DNA from: Bacteroidaceae bacterium
Lineage (GTDB): Bacteria > Bacteroidota > Bacteroidia > Bacteroidales > Bacteroidaceae
Reading direction: 5' to 3'
Assembly: GCA_017651315.1 (NCBI GenBank)
Contig: JAGCDE010000015.1
Location: 1 to 64,000, forward strand
Length of the DNA stretch: 64,000 nt
In this document: piece after piece, positions 698 to 23,167 of the stretch
How positions within the stretch are numbered: the stretch's first letter is position 1
Layout: the number at the start of each line of letters is the position of its first letter
Made by a program: the position numbers and the translations under genes
Notes under the pieces: model-generated
What the model was told of the DNA's origin: nothing
The model's input: the letters and a program-made list of their open reading frames with translations, nothing else
Databases searched by the model: none

Positions 698-2302
698 TTA
701 TTCGGAGAGGCCGTACATTATCAATCCTCCGGTCTGATTCAGCGAACCTTTTACGCTCAATGCATTCGTGCTGTTTTTGGTGGAGTAGGCGTAAACAGAA
801 CCTCCAGACATGCTCAAAGATTGCGTATCGAGTGAACGGCTGCGTATTGCGATACCGTCGGCTGAGTAGTCGGTACCTTCCGTAACGACGGCAATAGCCC
901 CGCCTGTAATGACGGTGGCCGACTCCGTGTTTATCCCCTTGCCTCCTATACCGGTGTTGAGCAGAGACAGCTTGCCTCCGCTTACGGAGAGGTTCTTTCT
1001 GGACCTTATGCAGGCAGTGGAAGAGTAATCGTTCTCCTCTTCGTCATACATGGGTTCTCCGGATGCCTTCAGAATGGCATTTCCGCCTTTGATGCTGACA
1101 TCGCCCCAGACATTGAGGCATTTTGATGCATTCCCGGTTACGGTGGCGGAAACGGCTCCTCCTGTCATGGTCATATCGCCGGTTGTAGTTATGGCATGAC
1201 CTTTGCTTCCGGTCGTGGATATCTTGGCATAGCCTCCTTCAATGTTGACGTATGCTGTGTCGGCATCAGGATAATCGGATACAATCCCGTCATCGGCGCA
1301 TGTCATGTCAAGAGAGCCTCCGTAAAGGCTGAACTCTCCCCTGCGGACAGAGATTCCGTCCTTGGAGGATTTGATGGTGACGTTTCCGCCGTACATGATG
1401 AACTTGTCCTTGGTGTTGATACCGTCCTTGAGGGATGTGATGTTTATCGTTCCGGTGTTGGCACGCAGGCGGATGTAGTCATCGCTGCATATTCCGTGAC
1501 CTCCGAGCGAAGTGATATTCAGGGTTCCTGAACCGCTTACAAGGAGCTGTCCTTCGCTGAAGATTGTTCCTTTCTGGTCCTCCGAGGCCGATGATGAGTA
1601 TGTCGCGCCGTCACAGAGGGTGTTGACGGTATTCTTGTTCAGGAGCAGATATACCGATTTCCCGGACTGGATGTTGATGGCGGGGCCGTTCGGGTTGGTG
1701 ATGCTCACCCCGTTCAGTGTCAGGCAGAATTTCTTGTTGTCGGCATCGCCGTCCTCGGTTATAACCTTGAAGGAACCGTTACTTGAGCTGCCCTCAAGAA
1801 GATATCTCATCTTGCCCTTGGTGGAGAGAACTGTCACGTGCGCCCCTGAGGTTCTCACAGTTACTCCGTTGACGGAACCGGATACTGTTACGCTGTTTCC
1901 GTTGAAAGTGAACTTGATGGTGTTCCTGACAGTGAAGTTTTCAATGAAGTCGCTGTCATCGGTTGCAGGTTTCGGTTCCTCTACATTACTGTACTCCGGA
2001 TCCGCGGCATTGATGATACTTTTCTTGAAGTCCGAAGCTGTGGGGAAAGCCGATGCACCCTGGACTGCCTGGTTGAAAGTGATGCTGTCAAGCATTCCCA
2101 AACCGTAGGAGGCGGAGCGCTTGTCTCCAAAATGGAAACTGACTGCCGTCCGGTCCCTGTTGAATCCGATGCTGTCTATCGCGACTGTGTTGCTGATGCG
2201 TGTAATGCCGTCATTCTGATGGAAATAGACGCTCTTGTGCTGGGCGCTCGCCAGGATGGGGAGCGCAACGGCGGCAGATAACAGAATTGTACGGCGCATC
2301 AT
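698..2302 (-). CDS. Secreted beta-helical carbohydrate-binding-domain protein (Cthe_2159-like)
   Basis: A 534-residue exported protein. Residues 1-20 form a signal peptide ending ASA-Q. Residues about 20-80 form a small domain with the pattern VYFHQNDG...IDSIGF, repeated once more as LDSITF. From about 125 to the end there are short beta-strand turns rich in GG, T, S and N with recurring GI-D-G units (for example DGINTKD, DGISVRR, DGIVSDYP). This is typical of the right-handed beta-helix carbohydrate-binding-domain proteins related to Cthe_2159, some of which bind acidic sugars. No T9SS C-terminal domain is present. The start codon overlaps the stop of the preceding gene as ATGA, so the two are probably translationally coupled. 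The ligand is unknown. Confidence 0.75.
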   Translation of the reverse strand: MMRRTILLSAAVALPILASAQHKSVYFHQNDGITRISNTVAIDSIGFNRDRTAVSFHFGDKRSASYGLGMLDSITFNQAVQGASAFPTASDFKKSIINAADPEYSNVEEPKPATDDSDFIENFTVRNTIKFTFNGNSVTVSGSVNGVTVRTSGAHVTVLSTKGKMRYLLEGSSSNGSFKVITEDGDADNKKFCLTLNGVSITNPNGPAINIQSGKSVYLLLNKNTVNTLCDGATYSSSASEDQKGTIFSEGQLLVSGSGTLNITSLGGHGICSDDYIRLRANTGTINITSLKDGINTKDKFIMYGGNVTIKSSKDGISVRRGEFSLYGGSLDMTCADDGIVSDYPDADTAYVNIEGGYAKISTTGSKGHAITTTGDMTMTGGAVSATVTGNASKCLNVWGDVSIKGGNAILKASGEPMYDEEENDYSSTACIRSRKNLSVSGGKLSLLNTGIGGKGINTESATVITGGAIAVVTEGTDYSADGIAIRSRSLDTQSLSMSGGSVYAYSTKNSTNALSVKGSLNQTGGLIMYGLSE

Positions 2303-2694
2303 TTTATTATCTTGATTGTTTTACCGCCAGTGCGCAGCAGATATATCCCCTTGGGCAGATCACCTATCACGGATTCCGTGGAGGCCGATGAGTCGTTCAC
2401 TATGACTCTGCCGCTCAGGTCATAGACTGAAACCGGCAGGACTGCATCGGCGATGATACCCTCCACGGCAGTGTTGTCGGAGAACAGCATCTTGCTGATG
2501 GATGAGAGGATATAGCTCGTGGCTGACCCGTCGTTGAGAGTGGCTACGAGATTCCCCTTTTCGAAGGTCAGCTTGCGCAGATTGTCAAGATTGAGGCTCT
2601 GTTCCTTCCCCTCCTTGTCACGGATGAGAAGGTCCTGGCTGAATGCAGGCATCGCCAGAAAAGCAGCCAGTAGGATGAGTAGCGTTTTTTTCAT
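2299..2694 (-). CDS. Small secreted protein with T9SS type A-like C-terminal sorting domain
   Basis: A 131-residue protein with a signal peptide (1-19, MPAFSQ). A short domain follows (about 20-75: DKEGKEQ...LRKLTFEKGNLVATLNDG...SISKMLFSD), then a C-terminal block VSVYDLSGRVI...LPKGIYLLRTGGKTIKIIK. That block has the hallmarks of a T9SS type A sorting domain: a YDLSGR strand, LPKGIYLLR, and a Lys-rich end. Almost nothing separates the signal peptide from the sorting domain, so the protein is little more than a CTD carrier. It lies 19 bp after the DUF2490 barrel gene and overlaps the next gene by 4 bp. The second locus at 22694-23167 has the same plan. Confidence 0.75.
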   Translation of the reverse strand: MKKTLLILLAAFLAMPAFSQDLLIRDKEGKEQSLNLDNLRKLTFEKGNLVATLNDGSATSYILSSISKMLFSDNTAVEGIIADAVLPVSVYDLSGRVIVNDSSASTESVIGDLPKGIYLLRTGGKTIKIIK

Positions 2695-2713
2695 ATATCT
2701 GTTTTTTATTCTT

Positions 2714-3601
2714 TCAGAAACTGTACTTGTAGCTTATGCTTACAACCGATCCGGCGGGTTCATCGTCGTCATTGCGGTCCTGTCGTATATAGGCAGCCTG
2801 GAAATAGTGGGCCTTGGCGATGTTGAACTCTATCCCGGCGGTAAGCCGGGTCTTGGCAAGAGTCCATTCCTTGTCAATCCTGTTGAAATACTCCACCGAA
2901 ACGAACGGGTCGAATTTCCAGTGCGGGATGTTATACTCGACACCAATCCTTGAACGGAGCACTTGCTTGGCGGCTCCGCCTTTCCATACCGTCACCATGT
3001 TGTCAGTGTCAGGTTCCTTAACCTGCACGAAATCCTCGGCCTCCGGGTCATATTTCTCCACGACTCCCCCGAAACGGTAAACCCGCCTGTCAGCCTGAAC
3101 GCTGTCGGAGCAGGTGAACTGGTAGCTCTCCCTTAGTGAGAACTTGAACCTGGAAACCTCGCAGGAAGCCTGAAGGGAGGCCGTGAAACGGTGCCTGTCC
3201 TCGTAATATGAATAAGTGTGGTTGAAGTCATGGCCGCCGTCCAGATAGTATTGCAGATCCAGTCCGTCCTCAATATCAAGGGAATCGCCCTTGTATTTTA
3301 TGGATTCGGGATTCAGCACCCTTATGAACTTGTATCCTGCGGCCGCCTTGACATTGAATGACTTGTCTCTGGTGCGGAACAGGCGCGTGCTCAGTGACAA
3401 CCCCGCGCTCCATCGGTCAAAATCCCTGAAATTGTCAGTGAGACGATATTCCGCTTCAACATCCAGGTCGGTACCCTTGACAATCTTCTTTTCTATTCCT
3501 GCGCTGACCCAAAGCCCTGTCCCGTCCTGACCGGAAACGTTCTGGGAGAGTGTCAGGACGGCTGCCAGGATGACCGTAATGAAATAACGATACTTTTTCA
3601 T
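2714..3601 (-). CDS. DUF2490 family outer-membrane beta-barrel protein
   Basis: A 295-residue protein with a signal peptide (1-24, ending VSGQ). Alternating polar/aromatic strands follow to a final aromatic residue (SISYKYSF), as expected of an outer-membrane barrel folded by Bam. The opening LWVSAGIEKKI...DLDVEAEYRL and the periodic pattern fit DUF2490, a Bacteroidota barrel family of unknown function. It is the first gene of a three-gene operon with the CTD protein and the beta-helix protein. A promoter lies 38 bp upstream. Its link to the secreted partners is inferred from position only. Confidence 0.75.
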   Translation of the reverse strand: MKKYRYFITVILAAVLTLSQNVSGQDGTGLWVSAGIEKKIVKGTDLDVEAEYRLTDNFRDFDRWSAGLSLSTRLFRTRDKSFNVKAAAGYKFIRVLNPESIKYKGDSLDIEDGLDLQYYLDGGHDFNHTYSYYEDRHRFTASLQASCEVSRFKFSLRESYQFTCSDSVQADRRVYRFGGVVEKYDPEAEDFVQVKEPDTDNMVTVWKGGAAKQVLRSRIGVEYNIPHWKFDPFVSVEYFNRIDKEWTLAKTRLTAGIEFNIAKAHYFQAAYIRQDRNDDDEPAGSVVSISYKYSF

Positions 3602-20189: not shown

Positions 20190-22697
20190 CTACGGACAGA
20201 CAGGCCGGACAGACTGGCCACTTAAGCGGTTTCCGAAGGCTGACCCAAAATTGGTTGACCAGAAGGAGATAATCCGCGAATCGGTCAAATTGGTCATTGA
20301 ACTGGAAAGGTAATGGCCATTTTCGTTCTGATTTTTGAGTTCCGTATCTTCGTAATATCCGGCAGCCGGAAGGAAGATTGAACGGTCTGTGTAACCGGGC
20401 TTGTTACTCGTTATACGATATCCTTTGATGTCATCTATCTTTGTCCAGGTCCAGGTGCACTCTGTTATCAACTCTTCTATCTCTTCGCTGGTTGGCATAC
20501 GCCAGTCACCGCCCCATACTACATGGGCTGCGTCATCCTCAGGTTCAAGGGTGCTCCTGTTGTCGGTGAATCCTTCGTAGCCCGATTCGCTCCATTTACA
20601 GTATTTTGTCAGATAATGGTTTTTACTCCATTTGTAGGTGTCCCAGCTGTAATCACTCTTGGTTTCAGTCTCACCCCAGGCATAGTGATTGCCGTATTCC
20701 TCTGGCTTGGAGGCACCGATATTGCAAGTGCCCCATTTTACGCTAAGGCCCAGATCAACGTACTCATGCCCATTGTAGTCAGGTTCTCTCACGTTAATAT
20801 CGAACACGTAATTCTTGTCGTAACATGATACTATGATTTTGGTTGAACCGATGGATATGCCTGTAACCATACCGTTCTCATCGACGGTGGCTATGGATGG
20901 ATCGACCGATGACCAGTCCACTTTACCCTCTATTACATCGTCACCATGTTTTAAAGTTGTTTTGATGGTATATGTGCCGCCCAATGGAATTGTCTGGGAG
21001 CTGATTTCGAAAATGACCTTCACATCTTTCAGCCATTGTTTCGACGGGCAGACAGGCCGCACGGATCGGCCGTAACCACGGCTGTTGGCGCCTATGTTGT
21101 AGTTGCCGGAATCATCGAATATGAGATAGTACGCGTAGGACGTGTTGTCCGTGTTGAGCGTGCTGGACCAATAGTAGCCGAATGAGCCCACATCAAAATG
21201 GCTCTTGTTGCTGTAGTAACCGCCAGCCTGGAGGAAGATGGATTTTCCGGTATAGCCTGATATGTTGCTGGTTACACGGAAACCGTTTATGCCGTTGATT
21301 GTCACCCATTCCCAGGTGCAGTTGTCTTTCAGCTCGTTCCACTCTTTCTGGGTCGGCATACGCCATTCCCCGCCCCATTCCACGTGAGCTACATCGTCCT
21401 CGGGGTCAAGGGTGGTCTTGTCGTCAACGGTTCCCTTTGCTTTGTCAGTGTTGTATTTGGTGAATCTGGCATAACTGCCTGTGCCGTTGGCGAACTTGTA
21501 ACTTGACAGGGCATAGTTGGTCTTGGTTGCGGTCTCACCCCATGCGTACAAGTCACCATATTCCCCGGGGGTCAGTGCTCCTACATTACAGGTGGCCCAG
21601 TTGACGCTCAACCCTAAGTCAACATACTCGTATGTGGGGGTTGATGTGGTGATGATGACCGTACAGGTGGCGGTCTTGCCGTAGCATGTCGCGGTTATCT
21701 TGGTAGAACCGACTGACAAGCCGGTGACTGTACCGTTGTCGCTGACAGTTGCAATGGACGGATCGTCCGATGACCAGGTCACGATGCAATCCACCACTTC
21801 ATCGTTATGTTTCACTATGGCTTTGAGAGTATATGTGCTGCCCAATCCGATTGAAGGATAGTCTTCGTCTATGGCAATGGATAAACCGCTCAACCATTTT
21901 ACCGACGGGCGGACGGGACGGACGGAGAAACCCACGTTGCGGCCTCCGGTGTCATCCGGAACCGGTTTTTTGGATTTCATGAAGACAAGGGTGTGGGCGG
22001 TATTAAATGGTATTAAGGCCGTGTTTTCTGACTTGAACCTCGTGTAGAGCGAGCTGGACCTGTAGTAACCTACGGAGTCAACGTCCTCTTTGATTGTGCC
22101 GCTACCGTACCCGGCGGCAGGGAGGAAAATGGAATTGCCATTCCTTGATACACGGTAACCATAGACCGTGTCCCCATTGTTCAACTCGTAGGTCCACATC
22201 CAGCTGCAATTCACGCAAAGCTCGTTCAGCTCTTCCCTTGTGGGCATACGCCAGTCACCACCCCATTTGACATGGGCCACATCATCTTCGGGGTCAAGGA
22301 TTGTATCGTTATCGATAGTGCCGAAACTGCTCCAGATGTTGTATTTTGTCATGATGTTACTTGTGCCGTCACACCATTTGTAGGTGCCCCAGTCGTAATA
22401 ACCCTTGGGCTCGGTCTCACCCCATGCGTAGAGGCTGCCGTACTCCTCAGGCCTGGAGGCTCCAACATTGAAGGTGCCCCAGTTGACGCTTAGCCCAAGA
22501 TCCACCTCCTCATAGTATTCTTCCTGGCCCGAAAAATAGATGTTCTCGATCTCCGAAACCGGGTATTTTGCGTTGTCACCATGCTTGAGCACTATGTTCA
22601 TATAGTACTGGGCCGATGCTGACACCGTGCCCAAAACAAGCAGAATGGCTGCGGTAAGGCAGCGTGTGAGCGTTGGTTTTATTGCTGAGTGTTTCAT
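20190..22697 (-). CDS. Large secreted protein with three major-paralogous-type repeats and Ig-like (BIG2) domains
   Basis: An 835-residue protein with a signal peptide (1-29, VSASAQ) and a short N-terminal domain, MNIVLKHGDNAKYPVSEIENIYF. Three repeats of the Fibrobacter-type major paralogous domain start at about residues 63, 356 and 642. Each begins like YVDLGLSVNWATCNVGA, then ...YAWGETETK, WGGDWRMPT and SVRPVCP. Between repeats lie BIG2 Ig-like domains (about 268-350 and 560-637) with IATVSDNGTVTGLSVGSTKI. It is probably cell-surface or secreted, with no enzymatic motif and no T9SS C-terminal domain. Its ATG overlaps the stop of the small CTD-like gene as ATGA. Confidence 0.8.
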   Translation of the reverse strand: MKHSAIKPTLTRCLTAAILLVLGTVSASAQYYMNIVLKHGDNAKYPVSEIENIYFSGQEEYYEEVDLGLSVNWGTFNVGASRPEEYGSLYAWGETEPKGYYDWGTYKWCDGTSNIMTKYNIWSSFGTIDNDTILDPEDDVAHVKWGGDWRMPTREELNELCVNCSWMWTYELNNGDTVYGYRVSRNGNSIFLPAAGYGSGTIKEDVDSVGYYRSSSLYTRFKSENTALIPFNTAHTLVFMKSKKPVPDDTGGRNVGFSVRPVRPSVKWLSGLSIAIDEDYPSIGLGSTYTLKAIVKHNDEVVDCIVTWSSDDPSIATVSDNGTVTGLSVGSTKITATCYGKTATCTVIITTSTPTYEYVDLGLSVNWATCNVGALTPGEYGDLYAWGETATKTNYALSSYKFANGTGSYARFTKYNTDKAKGTVDDKTTLDPEDDVAHVEWGGEWRMPTQKEWNELKDNCTWEWVTINGINGFRVTSNISGYTGKSIFLQAGGYYSNKSHFDVGSFGYYWSSTLNTDNTSYAYYLIFDDSGNYNIGANSRGYGRSVRPVCPSKQWLKDVKVIFEISSQTIPLGGTYTIKTTLKHGDDVIEGKVDWSSVDPSIATVDENGMVTGISIGSTKIIVSCYDKNYVFDINVREPDYNGHEYVDLGLSVKWGTCNIGASKPEEYGNHYAWGETETKSDYSWDTYKWSKNHYLTKYCKWSESGYEGFTDNRSTLEPEDDAAHVVWGGDWRMPTSEEIEELITECTWTWTKIDDIKGYRITSNKPGYTDRSIFLPAAGYYEDTELKNQNENGHYLSSSMTNLTDSRIISFWSTNFGSAFGNRLSGQSVRPVCP

Positions 22698-23167
22698 TTC
22701 TTCATGATTTTACAGGTCAGGTTCTCCGAGTTGATTATATAAATGCCGTCCGGCAGGTCCGCTATGCTGAATGTGACGCTGCCTTCCTCATCGGTCTTGT
22801 AGGTGCCCAGGACCTTGCCGTCAGAGCCGGTAACCGTGACTTTTATGCCGGCCTTGGCGCCTGTTATGCTGATGACATGGTTGTCAAGGGTCAGGACAGG
22901 CTTCAATGAATCATCTTTTTTAACAGTGTTCACACTGGTCTCGGGATCCGTGAAAGTGAATCCGGAGAGTGATGCCAGGGGAAACCGGACCTCGGTCCTG
23001 GTGGTGTTGAGAACCAGGTCGTTGTCCACGTAAGTGATTACAGGCTTTTCATCTAACCCGTAAGAGAACTGCTGCCCGTCCTTCAGATGGAAGGTGAGGG
23101 TGCTCTGCGCCATGACGGGCACCGCAAGGAAAGCCAGGCCGAAAAAAACAGAAAGAATCTTCTTCAT
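22694..23167 (-). CDS. Small secreted protein with T9SS CTD-like end
   Basis: A 157-residue protein with a signal peptide (1-21, PVMAQ). A domain with LKDGQQFSYGLDEKPVITYV, NDLVLNTT and FPLASLSGFTF follows, then a linker and a C-terminal beta block (GIKVTVTGSDGKVLGTYKT, FSIADLPDGIYIINSE, CKIMKK). The last part resembles T9SS type A sorting domains (V-x-G-x-DG-K-V, LPDGIYII, basic end), though less clearly than the 2299-2694 protein. It has its own promoter and overlaps the next gene by 4 bp. Its architecture and partner order repeat the first locus. Confidence 0.72.
   Translation of the reverse strand: MKKILSVFFGLAFLAVPVMAQSTLTFHLKDGQQFSYGLDEKPVITYVDNDLVLNTTRTEVRFPLASLSGFTFTDPETSVNTVKKDDSLKPVLTLDNHVISITGAKAGIKVTVTGSDGKVLGTYKTDEEGSVTFSIADLPDGIYIINSENLTCKIMKK

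What the first reader, a model, noticed from the sequence alone, without database searches (positions are those of the whole stretch)
698..3601. Two-gene T9SS module: a CTD-only protein coupled to a cargo that has no CTD (locus 1, with an outer-membrane barrel)
Seen: the 131-residue protein at 2299-2694 is little more than a signal peptide, a short beta domain and a T9SS type A-like sorting domain. Its stop and the start of the 534-residue beta-helix protein overlap as ATGA. The large protein has a related N-terminal segment (DG...IDSI-x-F) but no sorting domain. A DUF2490 barrel gene is cotranscribed upstream. Known: T9SS cargo normally carries its own C-terminal domain. Inference: the small protein may lend its CTD in trans, by binding the shared N-terminal domain, or may anchor the partner. 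The same order recurs at 20190-23167.
Basis: partly seen in the sequence, partly recalled or inferred. Interest (0 to 1): 0.72.

Follow-up and report, generated by a model that had tools for sequence, protein, structure and literature searches.

The report
Secretion tag lent by partner protein
In gut Bacteroidales a tiny secreted protein carrying the type IX export tag is encoded, translationally coupled, beside a large secreted protein that lacks the tag, and both share one small unnamed domain, which suggests that the tag is supplied by a partner instead of being part of the cargo.

Summary
P0001 (131 aa) is a signal peptide, an unnamed ~55-residue domain (NTD) and a type A T9SS sorting domain; the ATGA-coupled 534-aa Cthe_2159 protein has a signal peptide and the NTD but no sorting domain. 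The genome encodes SprA, PorU and GldL. Among loci found with the large protein alone, 34 of 36 NTD-bearing Cthe_2159 proteins have a neighbouring short CTD gene, against 7 of 46 called NTD-less. Partners also include FISUMP-, SusD- and CotH-like proteins; 0 of 97 match a T9SS sorting model. In three whole genomes the NTD was detected only in such pairs. Best reading: NTD-NTD docking lets the small protein supply the export or anchoring tag in trans. Contact and export are not shown. Against an obligate adaptor: 26 of 126 small genes lack such a neighbour, four paired large proteins are lipoproteins, two small proteins end in dockerin repeats, and co-evolution was not specific. Four T9SS literature searches showed no CTD in trans; TANFOR toxins are the nearest precedent.

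The parts
2299..2694 (-). Small CTD-only protein P0001, 131 aa: signal peptide, NTD (about 20-75), type A T9SS sorting domain (83-131)
   Evidence: (TIGR04183 34.2 bits over 23)
698..2302 (-). Partner P0002, 534 aa: signal peptide, NTD (about 22-77), Cthe_2159 domain, no sorting domain; start overlaps the small gene's stop as ATGA
2063..2245 (-). NTD of the large partner
   Evidence: E 2.3e-14 in the whole-genome scan
2467..2637 (-). NTD of the small protein
   Evidence: E 1.5e-18
2714..3601 (-). DUF2490 protein (predicted outer-membrane barrel), 295 aa, 19 nt upstream of the small gene
   Evidence: 75.2 bits over 29.8; this family lies near 54 of 71 Cthe_2159 pairs and 0 of 29 other NTD pairs
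22694..23167 (-). Second small CTD-only protein P0003, 157 aa: signal peptide, NTD, type A-like CTD
   Evidence: (TIGR04183 23.1 bits over 23)
20190..22697 (-). Second partner P0004, 835 aa: signal peptide, half NTD, three Lcl_C/FISUMP stretches and two Big_2 stretches, no sorting domain; ATGA-coupled
   Evidence: half NTD, E 4.5e-4

Best explanation
A split T9SS cargo. The small protein and the large protein are made at matched levels by ATGA-coupled translation (the overlap is shown, the coupling inferred), cross the inner membrane by their own Sec signal peptides (read from sequence), and dock in the periplasm through their shared NTD, probably by pairing of beta edges (inferred). The type A CTD of the small protein then takes the complex to PorV and SprA, and PorU processes and anchors it (inferred from what type A CTDs do). 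The large CTD-less protein, here a polysaccharide-binding Cthe_2159 beta-helix, is thereby displayed on the surface without a tag of its own. The NTD is a docking module that can equip unrelated cargo with the same adaptor type.
For: Pairing found without using the small gene as bait: 34 of 36 NTD+ against 7 of 46 NTD- Cthe_2159 proteins in the named set, 28 of 32 against 12 of 44 in the relatives set; most of these NTD- paired proteins show a divergent NTD by eye. 0 of 97 partners match a T9SS sorting model (91, 6), while 120 of 126 small proteins match TIGR04183 at E <= 0.01. Whole-genome scans with the NTD: own genome 5 of 5 matches (E <= 1) in coupled pairs; B. salyersiae 2 of 2 and Dysgonomonas sp. 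PH5-45 2 of 2 (E <= 0.01); 37 genus genomes: 29 of 44 long NTD frames within 2.5 kb of a short NTD frame on the same strand, 0.16 expected. ATGA at 70 of 93 junctions. Routes: lipoprotein signals by rule in 1 of 41 paired against 30 of 41 unpaired (named set) and 1 of 40 against 18 of 36 (relatives set). PorU in 40 of 42 genomes of paired loci or variants; SprA, PorU, GldL in the own genome. A natural fusion NTD-dockerin-NTD-Cthe_2159 exists (L174). Partners are of several families.
Against: No contact, export or localisation is shown. 26 of 126 small CTD genes have no NTD or Cthe_2159 neighbour; 13 of them, 2 at a contig end, are DUF2490-small loci, and their NTD scores are not lower than those of paired ones (p 0.95, 11 against 72). 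Four paired large proteins are lipoproteins by eye, with their own route (L066, L077, L087, L088). Two small proteins end in dockerin-like repeats (by eye) instead of a CTD (L109, L204), and their genomes still have PorU. Distance-matrix correlation between the two NTDs (partial 0.18) is no better than between the CTD and the large NTD (0.27). Some NTD-bearing long genes have no small gene beside them (L273-L284). That no long gene has both NTD and CTD (0 of 104) is weak evidence by itself: about 1.1 would be expected by chance (from the counts). The CTD match of P0003 is only just over the cut-off, and the small protein of the third own-genome pair is not matched.
Confidence: 0.5

Rival explanations
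1. Surface anchor, not export signal. The small protein is exported and tethered by T9SS; the large protein crosses the outer membrane by another route (lipoprotein export, or the DUF2490 barrel) and is held at the surface by NTD-NTD binding.
For: Lipoprotein partners (L066, L077, L087, L088), of which L066 and L077 visibly keep the NTD; small proteins ending in dockerin-like repeats, dockerin being an attachment and not an export module (L109, L204); DUF2490 near 54 of 71 Cthe_2159 pairs.
Against: Most partners are SPI proteins with no known outer-membrane route; 0 of 29 non-Cthe NTD pairs have DUF2490 nearby, so the barrel cannot be a general route.
Confidence: 0.25
2. Two subunits of one surface machine that share a secreted-protein module: the CTD protein is a component of the VTC/DUF4956/DUF2490 operon and the large protein is localised independently; pairing reflects co-regulation.
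For: VTC, DUF4956 and DUF2490 lie near 42, 45 and 54 of 71 Cthe_2159 pairs and also near 17, 15 and 18 of 65 unpaired NTD-less Cthe_2159 genes; small genes persist in this operon without a large gene.
Against: 29 NTD pairs with other partners have none of these neighbours, and many of them keep the ATGA overlap.
Confidence: 0.15
3. Ordinary operon without physical interaction; the NTD is a generic leader module of Bacteroidales secreted proteins.
For: The distance-matrix signal is not specific; NTD-bearing long genes without a small neighbour exist.
Against: In three whole genomes the NTD was detected only in the pairs, which a generic leader would not show.
Confidence: 0.1

Closest known systems
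T9SS type A cargo (TIGR04183 / PF18962)
   Same: Small protein has a signal peptide and a type A CTD in a genome with SprA, PorU and GldL.
   Different: Known cargo carry the CTD on the same polypeptide as the functional domain; here the CTD protein is almost nothing else and the putative cargo has none.
T9SS type B cargo with PorP/SprF partner (PMC9143113, PMC12618676, PMC10202324: passages read)
   Same: Two clustered genes, a CTD protein and a dedicated partner that decides its fate.
   Different: There the CTD is on the cargo and the partner is a PorP/SprF barrel; here the CTD is type A and the partner is the putative cargo. No PorP/SprF model matched the DUF2490 protein.
TANFOR polymorphic toxins (PMC7073777: passages read)
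   Same: Signal-peptide proteins encoded near CTD proteins, in genomes that nearly all have T9SS; the authors hypothesise that they are T9SS substrates and note that other mechanisms of T9SS secretion may exist.
   Different: Another domain, toxins; no shared docking domain and no CTD in trans is proposed in the passages read.
Cthe_2159 polysaccharide-binding beta-helix family (PF14262; PMC6712302: passages read)
   Same: The large partner is a clear member.
   Different: Extra N-terminal NTD and a CTD-only neighbour; many other members seen here are lipoproteins.
CPAP TCP/G-box domain (PMC3776556: passages read)
   Same: Weak profile similarity of the NTD (whole-chain E 0.002-0.005, best single stretch only about 0.2); both have DG-type repeats; TCP is a free-standing beta-meander used for binding.
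   Different: Eukaryotic centriole protein, about 20 strands, binds a proline-rich motif; monomeric; the likeness is probably convergent.

Membership tests
T9SS type A cargo (small protein) | N-terminal Sec signal peptide | tested here: met
   By inspection: MKKTLLILLAAFLAMPAFSQ; no trained signal-peptide program was run
T9SS type A cargo (small protein) | Type A CTD at the C-terminus | tested here: met
   TIGR04183 34.2 bits over 23; Pfam PF18962 at 22.2 bits is under its cut-off of 27
T9SS type A cargo (small protein) | Genome encodes a T9SS | tested here: met
   SprA, PorU, GldL over cut-off
T9SS type A cargo (small protein) | Protein exported, CTD cleaved by PorU | not testable with these tools
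   needs experiment
T9SS cargo (large protein) | Own CTD (type A, B or C) | tested here: not met
   no NCBIfam match for P0002; only FISUMP for P0004
T9SS type B module | Type B CTD and PorP/SprF barrel | tested here: not met
   neither appears among the matches; the barrel is DUF2490
TANFOR toxins | N-terminal TANFOR domain | tested here: inconclusive
   no such match for P0002; whether those libraries hold a TANFOR model was not checked
Cthe_2159 family (large protein) | PF14262 over gathering score | tested here: met
   166 bits over 25.8
CTD-in-trans adaptor (proposed) | NTD-NTD contact and partner-dependent export | not tested

The most novel reading that the evidence does not exclude
The NTD is a dedicated docking domain and the small protein an export adaptor: T9SS in Bacteroidales exports folded two-protein complexes in which the CTD sits on a separate, interchangeable adaptor. 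Any NTD-tagged protein (Cthe_2159, FISUMP, SusD-like, CotH-like), including some encoded elsewhere in the genome, can be cargo, and a second adaptor type with one YD repeat does the same for RHS proteins. Searches for CTDs then miss a whole class of T9SS cargo.
Probability: 0.35. Interest if true: 0.87.

Novelty: new variant of a known kind. Interest (0 to 1): 0.74.

Why it matters
T9SS cargo are recognised by their CTD; one paper states that cargo in human pathogens of the phylum invariably possess it (PMC8545088, start of abstract). If the CTD can be supplied by a partner, lists of T9SS cargo in gut Bacteroidales are incomplete, the translocon must pass two-protein complexes, and the pair is a ready way to display large proteins. 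The question is directly testable in a cultured species, Bacteroides salyersiae DSM 18765, which has one such pair and PorU.

Tried and rejected
NTD decay: I expected the small protein's NTD to decay where the large gene is absent; NTD scores do not differ (72 paired, 11 unpaired not at a contig end, p 0.95), so the claim is dropped. In the same call the CTD scores of the unpaired ones are higher (median 80.2 against 57.7 bits), which I cannot explain. Co-evolution: the partial correlation of NTD distances in 58 pairs was 0.18 and 0 of 300 permutations reached it, but CTD against large NTD gave 0.27, so it is not specific. T9SS-free genomes with pairs: G046 lacked SprA but has PorU, so it is no clear counter-example. 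Some pair loci first looked unpaired because an opposite-strand ORF hid the small gene in my caller (L151, L170) or the small frame was not among the listed matches (L272). My first signal-peptide classifier miscalled AQ-type sites as lipoprotein; the second missed plain lipoboxes, so I give rule and eye counts. Programmed frameshift at ATGA: rejected, the downstream frame has its own start and signal peptide. The partners counted were chosen as lacking a CTD by my own profile; no long NTD gene was dropped by that rule (0 of 104).

Passages were read of PMC10994853, PMC10202324, PMC9143113, PMC12618676, PMC7073777, PMC3776556 and PMC6712302; of the others only listings and starts of abstracts. 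No CTD in trans was seen there; most subscription papers are not in the library.
Full report
What is there. P0001 (2299-2694, minus, 131 aa) has a signal peptide, about 55 residues of an unnamed domain made of two similar units (hydrophobic strand, DG turn, then IxxITF-like), and a C-terminal domain that passes TIGR04183 (34.2 bits, cut-off 23) although it stays under the Pfam cut-off (22.2 against 27). Its stop and the start of the 534-aa protein overlap as ATGA. That protein has its own signal peptide, the same N-terminal domain (here NTD) and a Cthe_2159 domain (166 bits), and no sorting model matches it. A DUF2490 gene lies 19 nt upstream. The second locus (20190-23167) repeats small-then-large with ATGA, with a FISUMP/Lcl_C/Big_2 partner and no DUF2490.

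Is there a T9SS? Yes: SprA (2667 bits), PorU (1032 bits) and GldL (102 bits) are in the window's own assembly, a 2.69-Mb, 83% complete genome; the best-matching named contig listed, L139, is a Bacteroidaceae bin from water-buffalo rumen. TIGR04183 finds 9 places there at E <= 1, 5 over cut-off; 3 of those 5 are short proteins (131, 157, 152 aa) directly upstream of large secreted proteins without a CTD match (the third, an RHS protein, was scanned with Pfam only). A further NTD pair lies on another contig (191 aa + 566 aa, L130); its small protein, scanned without its N-terminal extension, is not matched by TIGR04183.

Is the pairing conserved? I fetched loci around every listed Cthe_2159 match (E <= 1e-8; 46 of 120 relatives) and, with an alignment of 15 large proteins only, 80 loci from named genomes, the best 80 of 560 confirmed candidates. 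In the named set 34 of 36 NTD-bearing Cthe_2159 proteins have a neighbouring short CTD gene on the same strand, against 7 of 46 called NTD-less; those 7 show a divergent NTD by eye. Of the 2 exceptions one is a fused protein (L174) and one has a dockerin-bearing small neighbour (L204). In the relatives set the figures are 28 of 32 against 12 of 44; most but not all of those 12 show an NTD by eye (L088 does not), and the 4 unpaired NTD proteins are L071, L093, L109 and L123. Lipoprotein signals: by rule 1 of 41 paired against 30 of 41 unpaired (named set) and 1 of 40 against 18 of 36 (relatives set). Reading the discordant N-termini by eye gives 1 of 41 (L142; the rule's hit L172 looks like an AQ site) against 38 of 41 in the named set. 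In the relatives set four paired proteins are lipoproteins by eye (L066, L077, L087, L088), and there the small gene follows the large one.

Beyond one family. In the loci fetched with Cthe_2159 or small-protein baits I collected 126 distinct short (225 aa or less) CTD genes. By the strict NTD rule 87 have a same-strand NTD partner without CTD (83 downstream, 4 upstream), 34 have none and 5 lie at a contig end; counting Cthe_2159 neighbours with a divergent NTD, 71 have a Cthe_2159 partner, 29 another NTD partner and 26 none. 120 of 126 match TIGR04183 at E <= 0.01. 97 partners with complete genes were collected; 0 of 97 match a T9SS sorting model (91, the 6 longest). Pfam names of the 91: Cthe_2159 70, Lcl_C 8, SusD-like, CotH, DUF4465 and peptidase C2 one each, among others. 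Of 104 long NTD genes none has a CTD by my profile (about 1.1 expected by chance, so weak by itself), and 88 of 103 with the NTD near the start sit next to a short CTD gene. The ATGA overlap joins 70 of 93 small-to-downstream-partner junctions against 94 of 714 other same-strand junctions.

Whole-genome scans. The NTD profile A5 finds 5 places in the own genome at E <= 1, all in coupled pairs. In Bacteroides salyersiae (5.3 Mb) and Dysgonomonas sp. PH5-45 (2.7 Mb) it finds 2 places each at E <= 0.01, the small and its adjacent large protein. In 37 genus genomes there are 117 places (34 of 37 genomes), 73 in short and 44 in long frames; 29 of the 44 lie within 2.5 kb of a short one on the same strand, 0.16 expected. 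Of the 15 others I read 13: one (L272) is a further pair whose small frame was not listed; of the remaining 12, none has a small CTD gene beside it in the stretch read; three look FISUMP-type by eye (L277, L279, L282), three are alike (L273-L275; the one scanned is GH43), the rest I did not assign. Further ATGA-coupled pairs with partners of up to 2003 aa appeared (L285, L287, L288, L290, L291).

Tie to T9SS. PorU is found in 40 of 42 genomes of paired loci or variants, in 5 of 5 further paired relatives, and in 5 of 10 genomes chosen for an unpaired lipoprotein-type Cthe_2159 protein. SprA is in 101 of 120 relatives.

The NTD. No Pfam family matches more than two of 42 NTDs, none below E 0.02. 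Against solved structures the profile weakly meets the CPAP TCP/G-box domain (whole-chain E 0.002-0.005, best single stretch about 0.2) and residues 22-80 of 6d2w, named as a BglC glycosidase (E 0.003; that it comes from Prevotella bryantii is recalled). The TCP domain is a free-standing single-layer beta-meander that binds a peptide along its edge (PMC3776556, passages). This is a lead only: an open sheet with exposed edges would explain NTD-NTD docking.

Mechanism. Shown: co-location, ATGA overlap, shared domain, absent CTD in the partner, T9SS in the genome. Inferred: docking in the periplasm, export through SprA led by the small protein's CTD, and surface anchoring. That paired Cthe_2159 proteins rarely, and unpaired ones often, have a lipoprotein signal suggests that the pair solves the same problem as a lipid anchor: getting Cthe_2159 to the surface. 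A fused protein, NTD-dockerin-NTD-Cthe_2159 (L174; dockerin 35.5 bits over 22.9), argues for physical association.

Results against. 26 of 126 small genes lack an NTD or Cthe_2159 neighbour. Of these, 13 DUF2490-small loci (2 at a contig end) have unreduced NTD scores as a group (two of them, L242 and L247, have almost none), so the small protein can have another role in the VTC-DUF4956-DUF2490 operon. That operon flanks many Cthe_2159 pairs (DUF2490 54, DUF4956 45, VTC 42 of 71) but 0 of 29 other NTD pairs. Lipoprotein partners and dockerin-bearing small proteins (L109, L204, by eye) fit anchoring better than export. The co-evolution test was not specific.

A parallel. A second small CTD type carries one YD repeat and precedes an RHS protein in the own genome (L013); relatives are found in 33 of 120 genomes at E <= 1e-6, some matching only through the CTD, and by eye 8 or 9 of the 20 loci read have an RHS-like start directly downstream. 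The small protein again carries a piece of its partner's own module.

Known or new. Literature seen describes the CTD as necessary and sufficient on the cargo (PMC12618676, passages) and as invariably present in pathogens of the phylum (PMC8545088, start of abstract). The nearest precedent is the TANFOR toxins, near CTD genes and hypothesised T9SS substrates (PMC7073777, passages). I saw no proposal of a CTD in trans in four T9SS searches of an open-access library, of which I saw only the top listings.

Noticed in passing
L013:192-7436 (own genome, contig C21): 152-aa CTD protein with one YD repeat directly upstream of a 2252-aa RHS/SpvB-type protein with an Ntox23-like end; a further 126-aa secreted protein precedes both, and similar ones precede the small gene in some relatives (L296, L298, L299, L301, by eye).
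   Followed up: partly
L220:1672-4446 and similar loci among L219-L230, L242, L247: Operon VTC - DUF4956 - DUF2490 - small CTD protein without a large NTD partner; in L242 the NTD is not detected and in L247 hardly.
   Followed up: partly
L174:5590-7614 (SUXO01000025): Single 674-aa protein NTD - dockerin - NTD - Cthe_2159, like a fusion of the small and large halves with dockerin in place of the CTD.
   Followed up: partly
L109:5247-5654 and L204:2978-3439: Small NTD proteins ending in dockerin-like repeats (by eye) instead of a T9SS CTD, beside Cthe_2159 genes.
   Followed up: partly
G161:C75:1946-16978 (genome of L204, Muribaculaceae): Four PorU sortase homologues in tandem, all over the cut-off.
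   Followed up: no
L014:1810-4798 (own genome, contig C57): A 406-aa CTD protein is followed 4 nt later by a 587-aa subtilisin-like protein (by eye) with no CTD-like end: possibly another pair without NTD.
   Followed up: no
L020:9140-10792 (own genome, contig C11): 550-aa protein with a CTD-like end found by my CTD profile but not by the TIGR04183 scan of the genome.
   Followed up: no
L273-L284: NTD-bearing long proteins without a small CTD gene beside them, in genomes that have short NTD frames elsewhere; candidates for a shared adaptor.
   Followed up: partly
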